This document shows positions 181 to 16,549 of a stretch of DNA of 16,787 nucleotides, one piece after another (within the stretch, counting starts at the first letter, position 1; every line of letters begins with the position of its first letter). The translations under genes were made by a program, and so were the position numbers. Source of the DNA: an uncultured Oscillospiraceae bacterium (GTDB taxonomy: Bacteria > Bacillota > Clostridia > Oscillospirales > Ruminococcaceae). The stretch is taken from the NCBI GenBank assembly GCA_900556525.1, contig USOZ01000014.1, positions 1 to 16,787 of the forward strand, written 5' to 3'. The notes below the pieces were generated by a model, which did not search any database, was not told where the DNA came from, and saw only the letters and a program-made list of their open reading frames with translations.

Positions 181-1794
181 ATGATTACAGTATCGGACGT
201 AAGCCTGCAGTTCGGAGGACAGACCCTCTTCAAAAATGTTGACCTTTTATTTACCGAGGGCAACTGCTACGGCGTTATCGGCGCAAACGGCGCGGGAAAA
301 TCGACATTCCTCAAAATCCTCAACGGCGAGCTTGAGCCGACAACGGGAACCGTAACTATCCCGAAAAATCTGCGTATGTCGGTGCTTCGTCAGGACCACT
401 TTGCTTTCGACGAATATACCGTTCAGGAAACCGTTATCATGGGGAACAAGCGCCTTTACGACGTGATGAAAGAAAAGGACGCCCTTTATGAGAAAGAGGA
501 CTTCTCCGAGGAGGACGGAAACCGCGCAAGCGAGCTTGAGGGCGAATTTGCCGAACTCGGCGGCTGGGAAGCGGAAAGCGACGCAGCTAAGCTCGTTCAG
601 GGACTCGGGCTTGACGAAAGCATTATGTACAGCAATATGAGCAGCCTTTCGGGTAACGAAAAGGTAAAGGTGCTTCTCGCGCAGGCTCTTTTTGGAAATC
701 CCGATATAATCCTTATGGACGAGCCTACTAACCACCTCGATATTGACGCTATCGCGTGGCTCGAGGACTTCCTCGCGGAATATTTCGGAACAGTTATCGT
801 TGTTTCCCACGACCGCCACTTCCTCAACAACGTCTGCACTCACACGGTCGATATCGACTACGGAAAAATCAAAATGTACGTCGGAAACTATGAGTTCTGG
901 TATGAATCTTCACAGCTTATTCAGCGCATGATAAAGCAGCAGAACAAGAAAAATGAAGAAAAAATAAAGGAACTTCAGACGTTTATCCAGCGCTTCTCCG
1001 CTAATAAGTCCAAGTCCAAGCAGGCGACCTCCCGCCGCAAGCTGCTCGATAAGCTGACGGTCGAGGAAATGCCCGCGTCAAGCCGCCGCTATCCGTTTAT
1101 CGGCTTCGATATGGAAAGAGAAGCGGGTAAGGATATTTTACAGGTCAGCGGGCTTTCAAAGACGGTTGACGGCGTGAAGGTTCTCGACGACGTTTCGTTC
1201 ACCGTCGGAAAGGGCGATAAGATCGCGTTCCTCGGCGAAAGCGAAATTGCGATAACTACACTTTTTAAGATAATTATGGGCGAGCTCGAACCCGACGAGG
1301 GCAGCTATAAATGGGGAAGCACCATTACAACAAGCTACTTCCCGATCGACTCCGACCACTTCTTCGCGGGCTGCACAATGTCCATTCTTGACTGGATACG
1401 CCAGTATTCGACCGACGTTACCGAAACTTATCTGCGCGGATTTCTCGGAAGAATGCTGTTCTCGGGCGACGACATTTATAAGCCCGTAAACGTTCTTTCG
1501 GGCGGCGAAAAGGTGCGCTGTATGTTCTCAAGAATGATGCTGTTCCAGTCGAACGTGCTGGTTCTCGACCGCCCCACGAACCACCTCGACCTCGAAAGCA
1601 TTACCGCCGTCAACAACGGTCTGCGCGACTTTAAGGGCAACGTTCTGTTTGCCTCGCACGACCACGAGATCGTTCAGACGGTCGCAAACCGCATTATCGA
1701 GATAAACGAACACGGCTGCTACGATAAAATCGGCACTTACGAGGAATATATCGACTGGCGCAAGGGTCAGAACCTCGGAACATTTACGTTATAA
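181..1794 (+). CDS. ABC-F family ATP-binding cassette protein with a degenerate second ATPase site
   Basis: This soluble twin-cassette ATPase (537 residues, no membrane segments) belongs to the ABC-F class. Members bind the ribosome and act in translation or antibiotic protection. Cassette 1 has Walker A GANGAGKST at 34-42, a signature reading LSGNE (156-160) instead of LSGGE, Walker B ending D180-E181, and switch His210. A charged, Lys-rich linker with predicted helices joins the halves at about 240-300. Cassette 2 has lost its Walker A lysine (GESEIAITT, 352-360, Ile358 where Lys is expected). It keeps LSGGEK (439-444), but the Walker B glutamate is Arg464; His493 remains. It resembles the YkpA/YbiT-like branch, where I recall worn second sites, so the gene is probably functional and asymmetric rather than decayed. 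The start is supported by its promoter and ribosome binding site. It is a single-gene unit. A specific resistance role cannot be claimed. Confidence 0.9.
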   Translation: MITVSDVSLQFGGQTLFKNVDLLFTEGNCYGVIGANGAGKSTFLKILNGELEPTTGTVTIPKNLRMSVLRQDHFAFDEYTVQETVIMGNKRLYDVMKEKDALYEKEDFSEEDGNRASELEGEFAELGGWEAESDAAKLVQGLGLDESIMYSNMSSLSGNEKVKVLLAQALFGNPDIILMDEPTNHLDIDAIAWLEDFLAEYFGTVIVVSHDRHFLNNVCTHTVDIDYGKIKMYVGNYEFWYESSQLIQRMIKQQNKKNEEKIKELQTFIQRFSANKSKSKQATSRRKLLDKLTVEEMPASSRRYPFIGFDMEREAGKDILQVSGLSKTVDGVKVLDDVSFTVGKGDKIAFLGESEIAITTLFKIIMGELEPDEGSYKWGSTITTSYFPIDSDHFFAGCTMSILDWIRQYSTDVTETYLRGFLGRMLFSGDDIYKPVNVLSGGEKVRCMFSRMMLFQSNVLVLDRPTNHLDLESITAVNNGLRDFKGNVLFASHDHEIVQTVANRIIEINEHGCYDKIGTYEEYIDWRKGQNLGTFTL

Positions 1795-1855: not shown

Positions 1856-3442
1856 TCATTTCAGCTTATACTCAACAGGCTCGTAAACGTCCGTTCCGTC
1901 ATGTCCGACGAGGATAAACGATATACTGTCGAGAAGTTTGCCGTTTTCGTCATACAGGAGCGACGCGCTGAAATTCGCGGTAAATCCGGATCTGAGATAC
2001 CCCGACTTTTTATAAGCGTCAACAACTCCCTGACGGTTATTTCCGTATTTACACGCGATAATATTATCGCCCGCCTTGATATAAACGCCGCCGAGCGTGC
2101 TTTCGGCTTCCGAGTCAACAGCCCAGCCGACCAGCGAAACCTCCTCGGCATTTCTGTCTATCTTGATTTCGCCCTTCTGCGCGGGTTTTACATTATTATA
2201 TTTATCAAGGAACATTCCGTGATAGCTTACTGTGTTCTGCTGCTCTTTCTGCGGGAGAGAGGATATGGTTTCTTCAGCATTATCGAAAATATCTCCGGAA
2301 TTGAAGAAATTGCTTGAGCAGCCATAAACAATCACCGCGTCATAATCAAGCAGAAGTGCATTATTTAATGCCGAGCCGTCGTCTGTACGCGGATCAATTA
2401 CGGTTACATTCTCCGAAACGAGCGACATAAACGACATTGTGCGCAGCATTATTGAGTCGGCGATTATCAGCAGCCTCGGACCAGAAACGCTATTGCTGAT
2501 TTTGTAATACGCTTTCGGATATTGCAAGACGTCCGTTACCCAGTATGTGTATTCATTGCTGTCTTTTTTATTCTCATACCCATTTAGACAAACGTCGTCG
2601 TAAGTGCCGCTTTTCTTGGTTCCGTTATCGTACACATACAGACTCATTTCAGTCGGAAATTTCGGATGATATATCTCGAAGCTGTCTATTCCCGAAACAA
2701 ATCTTCCGCTGCTGCGGCTGGTGTTTCCGATAAAAGGGTAGGCGTTTATGTTATAATTGTTTTTGTCAAAGACCTTTCCAAATTCGGGAATTTCGATTCC
2801 ATAGCTATCCATAAGATGACGGGAGAGCAGCTCTGCGGTGTAAAATTCATACTCCGTGCGCAAATGGATATCCGTGTCGAAATATACGTTATCCTTTTCG
2901 GGCAGCTCCCCGTTAAGGTCGATTGTATCGATTCCCGCATTTTTCAGAGAATTAAAAATTTTCATCTGCTCGTCGTAAAAAGCGCCGTACCCGCTAACCT
3001 CGCGCTCGCCGTCGGTAAGCTCTCTTTCAGGGGTCTGAACATATATCAGCGGAATATCTCTTTTCTTCAGATATTCGCTAAGTTGCGACATCTCACCTAT
3101 GAAACCGTCTGTATCAATCTGACTGTTCAGAAAAAAGTAGATAGTTTCGCCATGCGCGGTTTTGATAAAGTCAAAATTCCCCGCAATTTTCTTGTTAAAA
3201 AGCGTCATGCCCGCGCCATAAATGTCGGCAAATTTCAGTTTATATGAAAACTTGTCCTTTACGTCAGCTTCAACCCCATTTAAATCCTTTTGCAGTTCTT
3301 CAAGGCTGCCTTTCGACCCGAACGTTTTAAATGAATTTCCTATACCGTTTATAATATTTTTGCCGTTCGCTATGCCGAAAAAGCATATCGAAAGAATAAA
3401 GAACACACTGAGAATAACGCCTGTAATTTTCTGATATTTCAT
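1856..3442 (-). CDS. AlgJ/DHHW-like SGNH-fold protein, probable cell-surface polysaccharide O-acetylation partner
   Basis: This 528-residue protein has one N-terminal membrane anchor (about 7-25) and an extracytoplasmic body. It resembles the AlgJ/AlgX/DHHW family, which works beside MBOAT proteins to place acetyl groups on exported polymers. The DxHW-type motif appears as D191-I-H193-L, keeping Asp and His but not Trp. The nucleophile block appears as ADSI with Ser330, matching a GDS motif. A second domain of about 100 residues (430-528) starts after EIKIDRN, contains VGWAVD, and looks like a beta-rich module perhaps for sugar binding. The start has an AGGAGG ribosome binding site 6 bases upstream. 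It lies 11 bases after the MBOAT gene, so the two are one operon. The substrate polymer is unknown. The family assignment rests on motifs and context, and the overall sequence is divergent. Confidence 0.8.
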   Translation of the reverse strand: MKYQKITGVILSVFFILSICFFGIANGKNIINGIGNSFKTFGSKGSLEELQKDLNGVEADVKDKFSYKLKFADIYGAGMTLFNKKIAGNFDFIKTAHGETIYFFLNSQIDTDGFIGEMSQLSEYLKKRDIPLIYVQTPERELTDGEREVSGYGAFYDEQMKIFNSLKNAGIDTIDLNGELPEKDNVYFDTDIHLRTEYEFYTAELLSRHLMDSYGIEIPEFGKVFDKNNYNINAYPFIGNTSRSSGRFVSGIDSFEIYHPKFPTEMSLYVYDNGTKKSGTYDDVCLNGYENKKDSNEYTYWVTDVLQYPKAYYKISNSVSGPRLLIIADSIMLRTMSFMSLVSENVTVIDPRTDDGSALNNALLLDYDAVIVYGCSSNFFNSGDIFDNAEETISSLPQKEQQNTVSYHGMFLDKYNNVKPAQKGEIKIDRNAEEVSLVGWAVDSEAESTLGGVYIKAGDNIIACKYGNNRQGVVDAYKKSGYLRSGFTANFSASLLYDENGKLLDSISFILVGHDGTDVYEPVEYKLK

Positions 3443-3453
3443 TGCGTACCTCC

Positions 3454-4920
3454 TCAGAAATTGAAATAAATGAACGCGTCATACGACGTAATCGTGATAA
3501 AGCTTATAGAAAGGACAAACACCGCCGCGATAATTACTGTTTCCGCCGTCGAATATACTACGCCGGAAACCTTTCCCGTACAGCGCTTCTTTATCCACGG
3601 AACGATCGGTGTGGATAAGATCATTCCCGCCGCAAGCAGTCCGAGATTTTCAAAGAACATATATAAAGCCGAGCTGTCGCAGAACGTTCCGTTAAGCCCG
3701 AACATTGCGCCTATATATGCCATTCCGCTTGACAGGTCGGGCGCGCGGAACACTACCCAACCAAGTATAACGCAGAGCAGCGTGAATATTCGGTAAAGTA
3801 CCTGCTGCCATTTGTGTTTGAATTTTTTCGGAAACCCCGTAATTTTTTCAAAAACAAGTATCGCAAAATAAAACAGACCCCATATGACAAAGTTCCAGCT
3901 TGCGCCGTGCCATACGCCCGTAAGCAGCCATACCACAAACAAATTCAGTATAAGCCGCGATTTTGATTTCACTCTTGAGCCGCCCATAGGGAAATAAACA
4001 TAGTCCCTGAACCATGTGCCGAGGGATATATGCCATCTTCTCCAGAATTCCGAAACCGAAGCGGAAATATACGGGTAATTGAAGTTCTCGTCGAAATGAA
4101 ATCCGAACATTCGTCCAAGCCCTATAGCCATATCGGAATAGCCCGAAAAATCGAAGTAGATCTGAAGCGTGTATGTCAGTATGCCGACCCACGCCAGTAA
4201 TGCTGTAAGCTGTGTGTAATCCGCACTGTTAAAGCAATAATCGGCGGTTATCGCCAAAGTATTTGAAAGAATAGCCTTTTTGCCCAGACCGATTATAAAG
4301 CGCTTTGTGCCGTAAACGAAGTCGGCAATGGTTTCCTTTCTGCTTCTAAGCTCGTTTGCGACCGTTTCATATCTTACGATAGGACCTGCTATAAGCTGCG
4401 GGAAAAGCGAAACATACAGCATCGTGTTGAGCGGATTTTTCTGAACCGTGCCGTTTCGGTAATAAATGTCAAAAACATACGAAAGAATCTGGAATGTGAA
4501 AAACGAAATTCCTATCGGAAGCGCAATATTCGTCTGCGGTATCACTTCCTCCGCTCCGAACAGGGAGAAAAGCGAGTTGACGTTTGAAATTGCAAAGTTC
4601 AGATACTTGAACACGAAAAACATCAGCAGGTCGAGTATGACCGTACCCGTAAGAACCGTTTTTGCCAGCCGCTTATAGTGCGCGGCATTTTCGGCGCTGC
4701 TTTCCGACTTTACAATAAACTTGTCTATAAGCAGCACCATAAAATGATTGATAAAGGTAACACCTATCATTATAAAAACAAACAGCGGCTCGCCCCACGC
4801 GTAGAAAAACAGCGAAGCCAGCAGCAAAAACACATTCTTGAACCGCCTGTCTATCAGATAATACCCTATGATCGTCAGGGGCAGAAAGAAAAATAAAAAA
4901 ATCGTTGATGAAAATACCAT
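3454..4920 (-). CDS. MBOAT family O-acyltransferase (AlgI-like)
   Basis: This polytopic membrane protein (488 residues, around ten or more hydrophobic segments) belongs to the membrane-bound O-acyltransferase family. It is thought to pass acetyl groups across the membrane to a surface polymer. Diagnostic blocks are YFDFSGYSDMAIG (255-267), EFWRRWHISL with His297 (291-300), DYVYFPMGGSR (306-316) and VWHGASWNFVIWG with His338 (336-348), the likely catalytic histidine. Length matches AlgI and DltB-type relatives. DltB is less likely, because the neighbour is an AlgJ-like protein and no dltA/C/D genes are present. The ATG is preceded by AAGGAG at 8 bases. It is the first gene of a two-gene operon with the SGNH protein downstream and a perfect promoter upstream. 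Confidence 0.93.
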   Translation of the reverse strand: MVFSSTIFLFFFLPLTIIGYYLIDRRFKNVFLLLASLFFYAWGEPLFVFIMIGVTFINHFMVLLIDKFIVKSESSAENAAHYKRLAKTVLTGTVILDLLMFFVFKYLNFAISNVNSLFSLFGAEEVIPQTNIALPIGISFFTFQILSYVFDIYYRNGTVQKNPLNTMLYVSLFPQLIAGPIVRYETVANELRSRKETIADFVYGTKRFIIGLGKKAILSNTLAITADYCFNSADYTQLTALLAWVGILTYTLQIYFDFSGYSDMAIGLGRMFGFHFDENFNYPYISASVSEFWRRWHISLGTWFRDYVYFPMGGSRVKSKSRLILNLFVVWLLTGVWHGASWNFVIWGLFYFAILVFEKITGFPKKFKHKWQQVLYRIFTLLCVILGWVVFRAPDLSSGMAYIGAMFGLNGTFCDSSALYMFFENLGLLAAGMILSTPIVPWIKKRCTGKVSGVVYSTAETVIIAAVFVLSISFITITSYDAFIYFNF

Positions 4921-8895: not shown

Positions 8896-9780
8896 TCACA
8901 TCTTATGTCCGATTTTTTTTACATTACCGCTTTCGAGAAGCTGTTCGATCTTATCCGCGTATGCGAGCGCGCGGGCGTAGTCAAGCACGCCGATAACCTC
9001 GCCTATGTAATAAACGCATCGTTCTATCTCCTCGTCGCAGCCGAATTTTATCAGCTCGTCGGCGAGCCTTGCCGATTCGTTGAAATCCTCGGCGGAAAGC
9101 GCCGCGCGAAGCTGCCCAAGCAGCCGCCTGAACCGCGTGGGCGCGTCCTCGCCCGTATCCTTACCGACAGCTCTTTCAAACTGCTCCGAAAAAACTCGCA
9201 GCTTCTTCGCGAAAAGAATATGCTTATCTTCGAGCGCGCTTCGGTCGCCGAGCTTCGCTTCTTGCTCAATAAGACCCGCAAGCTCAGCCATATCCGTCAT
9301 GCCGAGGCTTCGCAAAGTCCCTTTAAGCCCGTGGACATAGACCGCGTAATCGGAAAGACTTCCCGAAGCGAATACATTTTCGAGCTTATAGACAGTTTCG
9401 GGCGCAGCCAGCGCGCAAAGCACGGATTCGAGCGTTTCTTCTCCGCCGCAGCCCTCATCCGCCGTTCCCGCGTCCAGACCGTCGATAGCCGAAAGGCTTT
9501 CAAGAAAAGGCGAAAACGGCTCGTTATGCTCTTTTTCACGCGCAGCAGACGGGACAGGAAGCTGTTTTTCTTCCGGAATATAGCGCCTCAAAACCTCGTC
9601 GAGCTTCATTTTTTCAATAGGCTTTGTAAGAAAGCCGTTCATACCCGCCTCGCGGCAGCGGAAGTCCTCAGAACCGACAAGAACCGCCGTAAGCGCGATT
9701 ATCGGCACTTTTTTGTATTTTTCGCCGTCGAGATTTCGGATAACGGCGGTCGCCTTCAAGCCGTCAAGCTCGGGCACCAG
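8896..9780 (-). other. 3' part of a receiver-Hpt phosphorelay gene (left genome)
   Basis: What remains of this gene encodes the last part of a CheY-like receiver (beta4-beta5 with IALTA and FLTKPI), a linker, and an Hpt domain. The motif HGLKGTLRSLG carries the probable phosphorylated histidine (residue 233 of the joined frame). A further helical stretch of about 110 residues has no family I can name. Such receiver-Hpt modules usually end hybrid sensor kinases or stand as phosphorelay proteins. The 5' part, including any kinase domains and the phospho-acceptor Asp, is missing because of the seam. It ends 55 bases before recA on the same strand. Confidence 0.75.
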
Positions 9781-10029
9781 CGCCACCGGTGCTACCTGAG
9801 GCTTAACGGCAAAGATTACCAGATCAGCATCCTTTACCGCCTCTTTATTATCCGTAGTAACATTTACGCCAAAGGCTTCATGCAGACTGCGCGCATGTGC
9901 CTCAGTCGGCTCGCCTACGGTAATCATCTCCGGCGCAATCAGGCCGCCGCCGATAATTCCCTTGATAATAGCCTTGGCCATAGCGCCGCCGCCGATAAAT
10001 GCAATTTTCTTTACTGCTATTTGTCCCAT
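8896..10029 (-). CDS. chimeric open frame: ProC N-terminus joined to a receiver-Hpt C-terminus
   Basis: The frame reads 377 residues without a stop, but it is made of two unrelated parts. Residues 1-83 or so are the NADP-binding start of pyrroline-5-carboxylate reductase. From about residue 85 the text PELDGLKATAVIR begins in the middle of a response-regulator receiver domain and continues through PIIALTA (109-115) and LTKPI (Lys136) to a histidine phosphotransfer domain. Each half lacks what it needs: ProC has lost its catalytic and dimer domain, and the receiver has lost its phospho-acceptor aspartate. Codon style also changes at the join, as does the inferred host of the flanking genes. 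I read this as an assembly chimera, not a real fusion protein. The start at 10029 has AGAGGGG 9 bases upstream. Confidence 0.55.
   Translation of the reverse strand: MGQIAVKKIAFIGGGAMAKAIIKGIIGGGLIAPEMITVGEPTEAHARSLHEAFGVNVTTDNKEAVKDADLVIFAVKPQVAPVALVPELDGLKATAVIRNLDGEKYKKVPIIALTAVLVGSEDFRCREAGMNGFLTKPIEKMKLDEVLRRYIPEEKQLPVPSAAREKEHNEPFSPFLESLSAIDGLDAGTADEGCGGEETLESVLCALAAPETVYKLENVFASGSLSDYAVYVHGLKGTLRSLGMTDMAELAGLIEQEAKLGDRSALEDKHILFAKKLRVFSEQFERAVGKDTGEDAPTRFRRLLGQLRAALSAEDFNESARLADELIKFGCDEEIERCVYYIGEVIGVLDYARALAYADKIEQLLESGNVKKIGHKM
9772..9795. other. probable assembly seam between two genomes
   Basis: On the minus strand the sequence passes from typical ProC (AVKPQVAPVAL) to typical receiver (PELDG) within about eight codons here. 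Left of it lie clostridial-style genes, right of it Negativicutes-style genes. No repeat, insertion sequence or integrase is visible at the point. Confidence 0.75.
9787..10029 (-). other. proC: 5' part of proC (pyrroline-5-carboxylate reductase), right genome
   Basis: About 80 codons remain: a Rossmann nucleotide-binding start FIGGGAMAKAIIKG (11-24 of the frame), then the beta-alpha-beta continuation ending VIFAVKPQVAP (71-81). This is the recognised N-terminus of ProC, which reduces pyrroline-5-carboxylate to proline. The full enzyme is about 265-280 residues, so roughly two thirds is missing. The start overlaps the sepF stop by 13 bases, giving the operon order yggS-sepF-proC. That order is plausible for Negativicutes and identifies the right-hand genome's last genuine gene before the seam. 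Confidence 0.85.
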
Positions 10030-10580
10030 GGATTATTTCCCCTCTCGTCAAGCTCGTGCTCTTCGCCCGCATCTATATCTACGTTTTTCGGGGCGCAGAT
10101 AACAATATTGCGTCCCAGCTTTTTCATGCTGCCGCCGATAGCATAAACAGTACCGCTGATAAAGTCGGTCATACGCTTGGCAACAACATTATCTGTCTTA
10201 TCATAATTAACAACTACAGCCTGATTATCGCGCAGATAATCGGCAATCTTAGGAGAATCATTGAAATCTACAGGCTCCAGCAGTACAACTGTCATCAGCT
10301 TGTCGGCAATAGGCAGGTTAATGGTTTTGCTGCCCATTTTTTCATCTTTAACCGGCTCCGGCTTTGCTGCCGAACTCTTAAAGTTCAAAATGGATTTGCG
10401 TTCACGCTTAGGCTCCTCTGCCGGTGCTGCAGCAGCAGGCTCCTTGCTGCCGAAGAAGCGCTTCTTGGGTTTCGCCGGCTCCTGCTCGGTCTTGGCAGGC
10501 TTTTGCTCCACTTCTTCTTCGATGATTTCTTCCTCGTCATAAAGACTTAATGCATTCATGATTTTATCAATAATATTCAT
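10017..10580 (-). CDS. sepF: cell division protein SepF
   Basis: SepF bridges FtsZ filaments to the membrane and stabilises the division ring. The 187-residue protein has the expected layout. A short N-terminal amphipathic helix (1-13) suits membrane binding. A long Glu/Pro/Lys/Ala-rich disordered linker follows (about 15-83). The conserved core (85-167) includes FISGTVYAIGG.MKKLG and ICAPKNVDI. The frame could begin at a GTG one codon earlier, but the ATG at 10580 gives the standard MNIIDKIMN start with AAGGTTGGTGA upstream. It lies 24 bases after yggS and overlaps proC, consistent with one operon. Confidence 0.95.
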   Translation of the reverse strand: MNIIDKIMNALSLYDEEEIIEEEVEQKPAKTEQEPAKPKKRFFGSKEPAAAAPAEEPKRERKSILNFKSSAAKPEPVKDEKMGSKTINLPIADKLMTVVLLEPVDFNDSPKIADYLRDNQAVVVNYDKTDNVVAKRMTDFISGTVYAIGGSMKKLGRNIVICAPKNVDIDAGEEHELDERGNNPWDK

Positions 10581-10604
10581 CACGTCACCAACCTTATCTA
10601 TGTC

Positions 10605-11306
10605 TTAAAATTTCAGGCTATAATCACGCTGGCCGAACAAGGCTGTGCCTACACGCACAATATTGGCGCCTTCTTCTATCGCAACTGTATAATCATTGCT
10701 CATACCCATAGACAGAATATCTGCCTGCGGATACTGCTGCTTTAAACGGGCAAATGCACGGTAGCCTGCTGCAAATACAGGTCTTGTCTGCTCGATATCT
10801 TCGCATTTCTGGGCAATAACCATCAGCCCGCGCAGACGCACATGCTTGTATTCGGGCAGCTTCGGCAGCAGCGCCAAATAATCCTCTTTATCTAAGCCGG
10901 ACTTCTGCTCCTCATGGGCAATGTTCAGCTGCAAAAGAATATCCTGCACCTTACCGATGCGTTCCGCCTCCTTATCAATCGCAGCCAGCAAATGCTCACT
11001 GTCAACCGATTCGATAAGGTCAAACAAAGCAACAGCCTGGCGCGCCTTATTCGTCTGCAGATGACCGATAAGATGCCAGTAGCCGTGTTTGCCTAAGGCC
11101 TCCTGCTTATGCTTGGCCTCCTGCACGCGGTTTTCGCCTACGTTGGCAATGCCCAAGGCTTCGATATCTGTAATAATTTCCGGCGGATGGTTTTTCGTCA
11201 CCGCCACCAGCGTTACCTTATCTCCTGTGAGCAGGTCTTTATTTTTACGCTTGTCCAAAGCAGACGCTATCTGCTCCTGAACCTGCTTTAAATTATCAGC
11301 TAACAA
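10605..11306 (-). CDS. yggS: PLP-binding homeostasis protein YggS/YlmE
   Basis: This 233-residue protein of the YggS/PROSC (YBL036C) family binds pyridoxal 5'-phosphate without known catalysis and balances PLP and amino-acid pools. The fold is the N-terminal-barrel of alanine racemase. The PLP lysine is Lys38 in VAVTKNHP, followed by VGENRVQE (57-63), WHLIGHLQTNK, and the phosphate loop SMGMSNDY with RVGTALFG near the end. The initiator is a TTG at 11306 with a GGGGGG ribosome binding site 8 bases upstream; no ATG fits the family N-terminus. Position upstream of sepF is the usual Gram-positive arrangement. It heads the operon and has its own promoter at 11391-11419. Confidence 0.95.
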   Translation of the reverse strand: MLADNLKQVQEQIASALDKRKNKDLLTGDKVTLVAVTKNHPPEIITDIEALGIANVGENRVQEAKHKQEALGKHGYWHLIGHLQTNKARQAVALFDLIESVDSEHLLAAIDKEAERIGKVQDILLQLNIAHEEQKSGLDKEDYLALLPKLPEYKHVRLRGLMVIAQKCEDIEQTRPVFAAGYRAFARLKQQYPQADILSMGMSNDYTVAIEEGANIVRVGTALFGQRDYSLKF

Positions 11307-13352: not shown

Positions 13353-15275
13353 TTAATCGATAATATTTTGCTTGTAATCGTGATACAGAGTCTTGAGCTC
13401 TTCCATAGTTGCTCCCATCTCAACCTTGAGCTTGGAAACAGTATCATAGTCGCCTTCGGCAACAGCTCTGCGGATAGCAGTGAAGATGCTCTTCTCTTCG
13501 AAGGAATCCTTGGCCAGCTTAGCACGCAGGTTCTGAATTTTACGCCACATTGCCAAGTCGCAGTCGGTGCAGGTTTCCTGATTGTGCAAGCGCTTCATAT
13601 CAATAACAGCCTGATAGTTTTCCGGAATCAGACGAGTCAAAAGCTCGGTTTTCCAGCGAATCAGCGCACCCTGCATGAAGGAGTCGATGTATTCCTTCTT
13701 CAGGATATTGCCTTGGGTGAGCACGGCAACCTTTTCCGGATATTTTTCGAAGGCGCAGAGATTTTCCCAAACGGTAGCAGGCGGTTCACCGAACAGCTTG
13801 CTGCGTTCTTCCGCAGTGAAATCTTCAAACACGTCTTCCTCAGTGCGGTATTGACGGTCGGTATCCAGATAGAAGCCCTCTTCGCCGGCCTTCTTGGAAA
13901 TTTCTTTTTCCAGAGCCTTCAGGTCCTTGCCGGATTCTACGCAAGCCTTGATGCCGTCGAGGCAGGACAGGTAGAAGGCAGCAATGGCGATGTAGGTATT
14001 GGTGTACGGGTTCGGAGAACGCATTTCAATACGGGTAGCCTTATCGTTGTCCAGATCACGGATCAGGCCTGCAAGAATGGTTCTGTTACGGGACGGGTTA
14101 TCCGGGCTCAGACCGAGGCTGGTAACGATGCAGACAGGAGCCTCGAAGCCGGGTTTCAGACGGTTCAGAGAGTCAATGGTGCAGGAGATAAACGGATTGG
14201 TTACCTCGTAGTTTTTCAAAAGTCCCATGAGAGCGCCGTAGCCGACAGCGGACAGGAAGTCCTTGTGCATATCCTTCGGCGAGAACAGGTTGACAATCTT
14301 GCCGTTTTTCATTTTTGCGGCAATGCCTACATGTGTATGCTCACCGCTGCCTGCAACACCGGGAATCGGTTTAGCCTGGAAGGAAACCTCCAAGCCGTTC
14401 ATGCGGAAAACCTCTTTAACGATGATACGTGCCAAAAGCTCGTTATCAGCAGTCTGAACGCCGCTGCTGAACTTCCAGTCAACCTCCAGCTGCTCCATAA
14501 CGTGAGTCATATGACCTGCACCGTCAATCTGACCTTTAACGCCGCCACATTCCTTATGGCCCATTTCCGGCTCCAGACCGTACAGCTCCAGAGTCTGGAT
14601 GGTCTGTTCCAACGCAGTACGCACGTTGCCGCGGGTACGCTGCCAATATTGCTCCTGCATTACCTGAGAAGAGCTCAGAGCCTCCAGCGGTGCGTCCTCA
14701 CGCGGAGTTTTTACCCAAAATTCCAGCTCGGTAGCACTGGTGAAGAGCAGCTTTTCAATCTCGGCAGGATTTACATGCTCCAAGCCGGCAATTACCGGAT
14801 GCTTAGCAAACAAATCCATGATTTCTTTTTCTACATAAGCCAGAGTATCATTCAAAATAGAACGGGAATCAACATGATTGCCGTTGTGAATCAGATAGCA
14901 GGGAATGCGCAGAGTACCGATCATACGACCGCTTTCTGCGTCAAAATGCTCATAGTTATAATCAACAAACCAGTTAACGGTTTTATCAACCTTCATATCA
15001 ACGCGGGCATCGTTCAGAGTAGCGATACCGGTCAGCACAACGGAGGAACCGTCAGTCTGTGCTGCGCTGCCTGCCAAAAAGCCATCGATATCCTCAAGGA
15101 AAATCTTCATCGGGATTTTTTCGTCGGTATCATTACCGGCAAAATCCACACCCATCAGAGATACGAACTGAATCTCCGGATGCAGAGTCAGAAGCTCACG
15201 CAGAGTGCTTTCGTTTTGTTCTTCGGGTTTAATTACGTACAGTAAATCTTTGTTGTTCATGATCAGTGCAGCCAT
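13353..15275 (-). CDS. glutamine synthetase, large form with C-terminal extension
   Basis: The enzyme makes glutamine from glutamate, ammonia and ATP. Catalytic-domain landmarks are present: TELEF (Glu183/Glu185, metal site), HKECGGVKGQID (240-251), GSGEHTHVG (309-317, the GSGxHxH nucleotide loop), the loop around NPSRNRT (393-399) and RIEMRSPNPYTN (415-426). At 640 residues it is far longer than class I enzymes (~440-470). About 170 extra residues follow the catalytic core, including ETCTDCD and a charged helical end. This is not clearly the class III (GlnN) type, so I leave the class open. AGGAGG lies about 7 bases before the ATG at 15275; another Met at codon 6 is a weaker choice. It is a single-gene unit with its own promoter, a 5' leader with a hairpin, and a terminator. 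Confidence 0.88.
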   Translation of the reverse strand: MAALIMNNKDLLYVIKPEEQNESTLRELLTLHPEIQFVSLMGVDFAGNDTDEKIPMKIFLEDIDGFLAGSAAQTDGSSVVLTGIATLNDARVDMKVDKTVNWFVDYNYEHFDAESGRMIGTLRIPCYLIHNGNHVDSRSILNDTLAYVEKEIMDLFAKHPVIAGLEHVNPAEIEKLLFTSATELEFWVKTPREDAPLEALSSSQVMQEQYWQRTRGNVRTALEQTIQTLELYGLEPEMGHKECGGVKGQIDGAGHMTHVMEQLEVDWKFSSGVQTADNELLARIIVKEVFRMNGLEVSFQAKPIPGVAGSGEHTHVGIAAKMKNGKIVNLFSPKDMHKDFLSAVGYGALMGLLKNYEVTNPFISCTIDSLNRLKPGFEAPVCIVTSLGLSPDNPSRNRTILAGLIRDLDNDKATRIEMRSPNPYTNTYIAIAAFYLSCLDGIKACVESGKDLKALEKEISKKAGEEGFYLDTDRQYRTEEDVFEDFTAEERSKLFGEPPATVWENLCAFEKYPEKVAVLTQGNILKKEYIDSFMQGALIRWKTELLTRLIPENYQAVIDMKRLHNQETCTDCDLAMWRKIQNLRAKLAKDSFEEKSIFTAIRRAVAEGDYDTVSKLKVEMGATMEELKTLYHDYKQNIID

Positions 15276-15478: not shown

Positions 15479-16549
15479 TCATGCAAGCAGGCGGACAAGT
15501 ATTTCCTCCAGCTTTTCGTAGCCGCGTCCTCCCTGACGCAGCTTGATATTCATATCCGATAGTCCCAGCAATGCTTCCGTCAGACGCTTTTCGTCAAAGC
15601 GCCTGCTGTCGCGCTCCAAAAATCTGTAGGCATATGGGCTGCGCATCCCCAGCTCCTCCATAATGCCCTTTTGGTCGTAGCCTCTGCGCTTCAGCTCCAG
15701 ATAGCGCAGCACCTGACGTAGCTTAAATGCGACAGTTGCGCTGAGCGGCAGGATATAGGTTCCGTGCTTACGTTCGCTCGCCAGCAGCTCCAGACACTGC
15801 TTCAGCTTGCCTGCCATAATATAATTGGTTAGCGCAAAAGATGATGCGTTGGGCAGCAGTGCAAAAACATTCAGCACATCATCTTCCGTCCACTCTCTGC
15901 GTCCTGCGGCATAAATTGCCAGCTTGCCGATTTCCTGCTGCAGCAAATCCAGCGGAATTTCTTCCTTTACCGGCTCAATATATTCGCTGATGGCAGCCAG
16001 CGCATCTCTGGTAAAATGCGCGCCGTATGCTGCTGCCTGCGCATACAGCCAGTCATCAAGCTCTCTTTCCTTAATACGCTCACACGGACAAATCAGCGCA
16101 CTTGCTTTGAGCTGCTTATATAGCTTGGTCCGCTTATCCATTTTTTTGCTGCTGATAACCAGCAGACAGTAATCAGGCACGTCGCTGACTATCGCCGCCA
16201 GCTGCTCCATTTTCTTGGAATCGGTATCCTCCTGCGCATCCGCAGCACTGTTTGCTTTGGCAGGCTTTGCTGCCCACAGCTTTTCGTCCTTCAGGAAAAT
16301 CAGCGATTTGCCGCAGAAGAAGGGATAGCTGTTGACGGCCGCCTGCAGGCCGGACAAATTGGTGTCCTTGTCAAAAACCGTTATTTCGCGGTCAGCCTCC
16401 GACGTATCACCAAAAACATATTCCGGCAGCGCGGCAATAATGCTGTTGCGGTAGTAATCCTCCTCGCCGCACAAAAGCAGTACCTGCGCCTGCGGCAGCG
16501 GCTTATGCTGTTGTAATAGTGAAATCAGGTTTTCCGGTTTAATATCCAT
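15479..16549 (-). CDS. holA: DNA polymerase III subunit delta
   Basis: HolA is the clamp-loader subunit that opens the beta sliding clamp. The 356-residue protein opens with the family block VLLLCGEEDYYRNSII (23-38), continues with FDKDTNLSGLQAAVNSYPFF and KSLIFLKDEKLW, and later has LLQQEIGKLAIYA, characteristic of the delta middle domain. C-terminal helices include RQVLRYLELKRRGYDQKGI and a closing DMNIKLRQG. An Ala/Asp-rich insertion near 94-112 is a likely flexible loop. GAGGGAAT precedes the ATG at 16549. It follows the antitoxin gene by 15 bases on the same strand. The start was chosen by ribosome binding site and family N-terminus. Confidence 0.93.
   Translation of the reverse strand: MDIKPENLISLLQQHKPLPQAQVLLLCGEEDYYRNSIIAALPEYVFGDTSEADREITVFDKDTNLSGLQAAVNSYPFFCGKSLIFLKDEKLWAAKPAKANSAADAQEDTDSKKMEQLAAIVSDVPDYCLLVISSKKMDKRTKLYKQLKASALICPCERIKERELDDWLYAQAAAYGAHFTRDALAAISEYIEPVKEEIPLDLLQQEIGKLAIYAAGRREWTEDDVLNVFALLPNASSFALTNYIMAGKLKQCLELLASERKHGTYILPLSATVAFKLRQVLRYLELKRRGYDQKGIMEELGMRSPYAYRFLERDSRRFDEKRLTEALLGLSDMNIKLRQGGRGYEKLEEILVRLLA

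What the first reader, a model, noticed from the sequence alone, without database searches (positions are those of the whole stretch)
9772..9795. Contig seam: proC and a receiver-Hpt gene joined in frame
The minus-strand frame runs from the NADP-binding start of ProC straight into the second half of a receiver domain. Both proteins are cut at points that remove essential parts. Codon style and inferred host change at the same place. A real fusion would be non-functional on both sides, so an assembly chimera is the simplest explanation. The join is in frame, so an automatic annotator would report a novel-looking two-domain protein.
Basis: partly seen in the sequence, partly recalled or inferred. 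Interest (0 to 1): 0.75.

Follow-up and report, generated by a model that had tools for sequence, protein, structure and literature searches.

The report
Chimeric contig joining two bacteria
The odd two-part protein is an artefact: this DNA record glues a piece of one gut-type bacterium's genome to a piece of an unrelated one, cutting two ordinary genes at the join.

Summary
The 377-aa minus-strand frame (10029-8896) is the first ~84 residues of ProC joined in frame to the second half of a receiver domain plus Hpt. Each parent exists apart: P0004, an intact 273-aa ProC, 97.6% identical over residues 1-83, and P0001, with a whole receiver and Hpt, 99.7% identical over residues 90-377. None of the 120 listed homologues (of 189) carries both halves. 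Synonymous codons split the window best at 9783-9786 (gain 239; permuted maximum 35) and 4-mers at 9750 on a 50-base grid. The left side is Ruminiclostridium/Oscillospiraceae-like: a 911-916-aa hybrid kinase, then recA, recX, rimO and pgsA, stand together in three deer-gut MAGs. The right side is Phascolarctobacterium-like, cut in a yggS-sepF-proC cluster. Parental proteins confine the break to 9765-9777, leaving at most 11-12 shared bases, fewer than a usual assembler k-mer (recalled). A chimeric molecule or read, or a short-overlap merge, is therefore likelier. No reads were available; a real junction is very unlikely but not excluded.

The parts
8896..10029 (-). Chimeric ORF, 377 aa: ProC N-terminus (res 1-84/88) joined in frame to receiver second half + Hpt (res 85/89-377)
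9765..9777 (.). Breakpoint interval; 9766-9776 (11 bases) is the longest stretch that both parents could share (12 if ProC has Val at residue 89), and covers the codons of the Pro-Glu-Leu common to both
   Evidence: Parental residues; codons. Inferred from protein, not from parental DNA
9778..10029 (-). First 84 codons of proC (right-hand lineage)
   Evidence: 97.6% identical to intact ProC P0004 over residues 1-83
8896..9765 (-). 3' part of a hybrid histidine kinase gene: receiver second half and Hpt (left-hand lineage)
   Evidence: 99.7% identical to P0001 over residues 90-377; relatives are 911-916-aa kinases next to recA in L001-L003
5179..8840 (-). Left side: recA, recX, rimO, pgsA (Oscillospiraceae/Ruminiclostridium-like)
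1856..4920 (-). Left side: MBOAT acyltransferase and AlgX-like protein genes
   Evidence: codon style as left (where both were also training genes). AlgX is below its Pfam cut-off
181..1794 (+). Left side: ABC-F ATPase gene
   Evidence: best model below its cut-off; 91-93% identical to the copies in L001-L004; codon style as left, held out of training
10017..11306 (-). Right side: sepF and yggS, directly upstream of proC
   Evidence: the same yggS-sepF-proC order in 8 of 8 loci L075-L082
11492..16549 (-). Right side: acyl-CoA dehydrogenase, hotdog thioesterase, glutamine synthetase, holA
   Evidence: codon style as right (where these were also training genes)

Best explanation
The window is a chimeric contig. 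About 9.8 kb from an uncultured Ruminiclostridium/Oscillospiraceae-type bacterium (class Clostridia) was joined artificially to about 7.0 kb from an uncultured Phascolarctobacterium-type bacterium (class Negativicutes). The join lies within at most about 11-12 shared bases coding for Pro-Glu-Leu, in the same frame in both genes, so the frame stays open by accident. It most likely arose from a chimeric library molecule or read, or from an assembler step that accepts a short overlap. The 377-aa protein probably exists in no cell. Shown: two parents, two lineages, one sharp breakpoint. Inferred: that the join arose outside a cell, and by which step. The confidence given is for a chimeric contig by any artificial route.
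For: Parents P0004 (intact ProC with its dimerisation domain) and P0001 (whole receiver plus Hpt) exist apart, and 0 of the 120 listed homologues has both halves. The synonymous-codon split over 13 minus-strand ORFs falls at 9783-9786 with gain 238.8; 60 permutations gave mean 28.7 and maximum 34.8, scanned every 15 codons. The 4-mer split falls at 9750 on a 50-base grid. With the codon model trained without the fused ORF and without abcF, the three held-out pieces fall as expected (receiver-Hpt part -0.25, abcF -0.17, ProC part +0.17 per codon); the other 6 left and 6 right genes also separate, but they trained the model. The score along the fused ORF peaks at residue 82. Left taxon: RimO is 84% identical to a protein named Oscillospiraceae and 83% to one named Ruminiclostridium; kinase-recA-recX-rimO-pgsA stand together in L001-L003. 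None of the 6 intact right-hand proteins, nor ProC P0004, matches any of the 72 left loci at E 1e-5. Right taxon: P0004 is 77% identical to P0038, named Phascolarctobacterium sp.. ProC of left relatives is 32% identical (found in 2 of 4 genomes), and the best of 299 genomes of the left relative's phylum is 48%. The right-hand glutamine synthetase has only partial 31-33% matches, in 3 of 4 left relatives. The join removes the receiver's phosphate-accepting Asp (in P0001, FMDRVMPEL; role recalled) and the ProC dimerisation domain.
Against: No reads, coverage or assembly graph were available, so a real junction is not excluded directly. GUNC's authors call misassemblies relatively rare (PMC8201837, passage read). 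A shared k-mer of 21 or more is not supported by the parental proteins, so the commonest assembly route does not fit simply. In MDA chimeras, segments more than 10 kb apart showed complementary bases in only 28-35% of cases (PMC1855051, passages read), so a microhomology join between unrelated molecules is not the typical case there. Parental DNA at the join was not seen: the limit on shared bases rests on cluster-representative proteins. Some left relatives carry discordant names (P0168 Bacteroides, L004 Roseburia, L031 Bacteroides).
Confidence: 0.96

Rival explanations
1. A real junction: a recombination or large transfer in a living cell put ~10 kb of Oscillospiraceae DNA, including recA, next to a truncated proC in a Phascolarctobacterium-like chromosome, or the reverse.
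For: The frame is open across the join and the DNA has no gap or ambiguous base. Microhomology also serves real end-joining (inference).
Against: Both sides keep the codon and 4-mer style of their own lineage. Two genes are broken. The intact right-hand ProC cluster has 2785 members, and no second copy of the fusion was listed. No mobile-element gene was recognised among the 14 main ORFs searched; smaller ORFs were not searched.
Confidence: 0.02
2. A true gene fusion with a function, a ProC-like NADP-binding domain controlling an Hpt phosphotransfer domain.
For: Only the in-frame joining.
Against: The receiver has lost its phosphate-accepting Asp and its first half, and ProC has lost its dimerisation domain. 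No homologous fusion is among the 120 proteins listed. Codon style changes inside the gene.
Confidence: 0.01
3. A sub-case of the artefact: an ordinary de Bruijn misassembly through a k-mer of 21 or more bases shared by the two genomes.
For: Shared k-mers are a known cause of chimeric contigs (PMC7299287, passages read). Chimeric-looking HolA proteins P0278-P0280 of the same right-hand species hint at homology-driven joins.
Against: At 9777 and 9765 the parental proteins demand different bases, leaving at most ~11-12 shared bases.
Confidence: 0.2

Closest known systems
Inter-species chimeric contigs in metagenome assemblies
   Same: Two lineages in one contig and one sharp breakpoint, with each parent found elsewhere; described as misassembly in PMC8201837 and PMC7299287 (passages read)
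   Different: The join happens to be in frame, so it yields one long open ORF; the shared stretch is shorter than a usual k-mer (recalled)
Chimeric molecules of multiple displacement amplification
   Same: Joins at short matches: 2-21 nt in over 70% of junctions in PMC1855051, and over 95% of overlaps 3-13 nt in PMC5372508 (passages read); the limit of ~11-12 nt here fits
   Different: Whether this sample was amplified is unknown. The pieces come from different species; for segments over 10 kb apart complementarity was seen in only 28-35% of cases in PMC1855051
Hybrid histidine kinase upstream of recA in Ruminiclostridium-named MAGs (L001, L002, L003)
   Same: Receiver then Hpt at the C-terminus, followed by recA-recX-rimO-pgsA
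   Different: Frames of 911, 912 and 916 aa; HisKA, HATPase and a whole receiver were found in L001 and L002 (Hpt in L001 scores 22.9, below the 24.6 cut-off; L003 not scanned). The P0001 region is only 33-35% identical
Pyrroline-5-carboxylate reductase ProC in the yggS-sepF-proC cluster
   Same: Residues 1-84 and the two upstream genes
   Different: Cut after about residue 84-88; the dimerisation domain is missing

Membership tests
Inter-species chimeric contig | Two sides from different lineages | tested here: met
Inter-species chimeric contig | Single sharp composition breakpoint at the join | tested here: met
Inter-species chimeric contig | Parent genes found separately | tested here: met
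   P0004 and P0001. P0001 begins inside what is a longer kinase in relatives, so it covers the broken part but may not be the whole parent
Inter-species chimeric contig | Join not recurring independently | tested here: met
   0 of 120 listed proteins has both halves; 69 further hits of that call were not listed, and only the 7997 best candidates were scored
Inter-species chimeric contig | Drop in read depth or read pairs at the join | not testable with these tools
   no reads held
De Bruijn k-mer misassembly | Shared stretch of at least 21 bases at the join | tested here: inconclusive
   parental proteins allow at most ~11-12; parental DNA not seen
ProC (pyrroline-5-carboxylate reductase) | C-terminal dimerisation domain PF14748 | tested here: not met
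   not reported for the fused ORF; present in P0004
Response-regulator receiver domain | Whole domain with phosphate-accepting Asp and N-terminal acidic pair | tested here: not met
   positions 53-110 of 111 only, against 1-110 in P0001; residues; their roles are recalled

The most novel reading that the evidence does not exclude
A living Negativicutes-type cell really carries ~10 kb of Oscillospiraceae DNA with a second recA, joined by microhomology inside proC, caught before its composition changed.
Probability: 0.02. Interest if true: 0.5.

Novelty: not a real feature. Interest (0 to 1): 0.08.

Why it matters
It shows how an in-frame chimera can enter databases as a novel-looking two-domain protein. 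Neither the 377-aa protein nor the linkage of recA to proC in this record should be used as evidence of gene fusion, gene order or gene transfer. If the junction were real, it would be a recent transfer of housekeeping genes between classes.

Tried and rejected
A real fusion was rejected: none of the 120 listed homologues carries both halves, both domains are cut at essential parts, and codon style changes inside the gene. A scan of genome contigs with the fused protein found no relative, and a scan of viral contigs with ProC P0004 found none. A plasmid search with ProC gave 303 records, each under 60% identity. Solved-structure searches added family names, and one weak match that runs across the join. 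Literature searches, seen as listings, for chimeric contigs, spurious fusions and gap closing gave general context or nothing useful; passages of four papers were read. A second seam near 1795-1855 (displaced abcF) was considered; composition does not point to another species there, but a misjoin within one species cannot be seen.

Full report
WHAT IS THERE. The minus-strand frame 10029-8896 is open for 377 codons. Pfam places an NADP-binding domain at residues 8-85, the second half only of a receiver domain (profile positions 53-110 of 111, 29.1 bits, just under the curated 30.2) at residues 86-147, and Hpt at 209-265. NCBIfam matches ProC at the start (profile positions 1-76 of 263) and the ends of hybrid kinases such as BarA after it; all 14 matches are below their curated cut-offs. 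A solved receiver chain, 7c1j, aligns weakly to residues 43-162, across the join; I take this as over-extension.

THE TWO PARENTS. A search of 5.8 billion proteins (189 hits, best 120 listed, 7997 candidates scored) found each half as its own protein. Compared half by half, 116 of the 120 match residues 1-83 only, 4 match residues 90-377 only, and none matches both. P0004 is an intact ProC of 273 aa with the dimerisation domain, 97.6% identical over residues 1-83, in a cluster of 2785 members. P0001, 373 aa, has a whole receiver (profile 1-110) and Hpt and is 99.7% identical over residues 90-377. It keeps FMDRVMPELDG, with the phosphate-accepting Asp that the fused frame lacks (role recalled). 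In relatives the gene is longer: L001, L002 and L003 carry frames of 911, 912 and 916 aa before recA. HisKA, HATPase, receiver and Hpt are found in L001 and L002; Hpt in L001 scores below its cut-off, and L003 was not scanned. P0001 therefore starts inside the kinase, and its own upstream part may be missing.

THE BREAKPOINT. The fused frame reads VALVPELDGLKA. ProC proteins P0002, P0004 and P0005 read VALVPELMAAM and P0003 reads VALVPELVAAM; the receiver parent reads RVMPELDGLKA. Val85 is GTG, where the receiver parent has Met (ATG), so base 9777 comes from the ProC side. Asp89 is GAC, where ProC has Met (or Val in P0003), so 9765 comes from the receiver side (codons). The parents can share at most the 11 bases between these (12 if ProC has Val). 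This rests on proteins; the parental DNA was not seen.

TWO LINEAGES. Synonymous-codon usage over 13 minus-strand ORFs (4383 codons) splits best at 9783-9786 with a likelihood gain of 238.8; 60 permutations of synonymous codons gave mean 28.7 and maximum 34.8 (their split was scanned every 15 codons, the real one at every codon). Tetranucleotides, strand-symmetric or strand-specific, split best at 9750 on a 50-base grid; the strand-specific test gave the same without 1-1850. A codon model trained without the fused frame and without abcF scores the three held-out pieces as expected: receiver-Hpt part -0.25, abcF -0.17, ProC part +0.17 per codon. The other 6 left and 6 right genes also separate, but they were the training set. 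Along the fused frame the cumulative score peaks at residue 82.

Left side: RimO is 99% identical to the unnamed P0121, 84% to a MAG protein named Oscillospiraceae bacterium and 83% to one named Ruminiclostridium sp.; one 81% relative is named Bacteroides, which looks like a misnamed MAG. A scan with a RimO alignment gave 72 loci, mostly named Ruminiclostridium, Oscillospiraceae or Clostridia, with a few discordant names. Of these 72, 38 hold recA, recX, rimO and pgsA, 6 match the receiver-Hpt protein at E 1e-5 or better, and 4 hold abcF at 80% or more. L001-L003, the three best, carry abcF, the kinase, recA, recX, rimO and pgsA on one strand; L004 has all but the kinase. So the recA-pgsA run is common but not universal, and the kinase beside it was seen in few relatives. 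None of the 6 intact right-hand proteins (sepF to holA), nor ProC P0004, matched any of the 72 loci; the loci are only 3.5-21 kb each.

Right side: P0004 is 77% identical over its whole length to P0038, named Phascolarctobacterium sp., and the only genus name in the list of 49 HolA relatives is also Phascolarctobacterium, at 45%. NCBI places Phascolarctobacterium in Negativicutes and Ruminiclostridium in Clostridia. ProC was found in 2 of 4 genomes of left relatives, at 32%; the other two showed none, perhaps because these drafts are incomplete. In 299 genomes of the phylum of L001's genome, 253 had a match and the best was 48%. The right-hand glutamine synthetase has only partial matches of 31-33%, in 3 of 4 left relatives. 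In all 8 loci fetched around the best ProC matches, yggS, sepF and proC follow one another, so the right side is a common cluster cut inside its third gene.

MECHANISM. Both genes lose essential parts, each parent exists apart, and two lineages meet at one point: this is a chimeric contig. The shared stretch is too short for a usual k-mer of 21 or more (k recalled). Chimeric molecules join at such lengths: 2-21 nt in over 70% of junctions in an MDA study (PMC1855051), though in only 28-35% of cases for segments over 10 kb apart; over 95% of overlaps were 3-13 nt in another (PMC5372508; passages read). A short-overlap merge by an assembler is the alternative; one search found no useful paper on it. 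GUNC's authors call misassembly relatively rare (PMC8201837, passage read). That the same three residues stand in the same frame at the join in both parents makes a homology-guided join likelier than a blunt one (inference).

LIMITS. No reads and no genome for this window were available. Absence of the fusion is absence from the listed hits of one search. The finding is an artefact and scores low.

Noticed in passing
181-1794 (+): The ABC-F gene lies at the far end, convergent to the AlgX-like gene, whereas in L001-L004 it lies upstream of recA on the same strand. A real rearrangement or a second misjoin within the same species.
   Followed up: partly
15479-16549 (-), proteins P0278, P0279, P0280: Three database proteins join different cytidylate-kinase-like starts (PF13189) to this species' HolA C-terminus at the same point, at a shared DVLNVF motif; they look like further in-frame chimeras of the same right-hand species.
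   Followed up: partly
proteins P0002 and P0003: P0002 is ProC of this species running into a different domain (PF04245) after about residue 167; P0003 (40 members) departs from ProC near residue 185 as if frameshifted.
   Followed up: no
L001, L003: No ProC was found in the genomes of these two left relatives; incomplete drafts or true absence.
   Followed up: no
13353-15275 (-): The 640-aa glutamine synthetase is below the curated cut-off of each of the 4 NCBIfam models listed for it.
   Followed up: no
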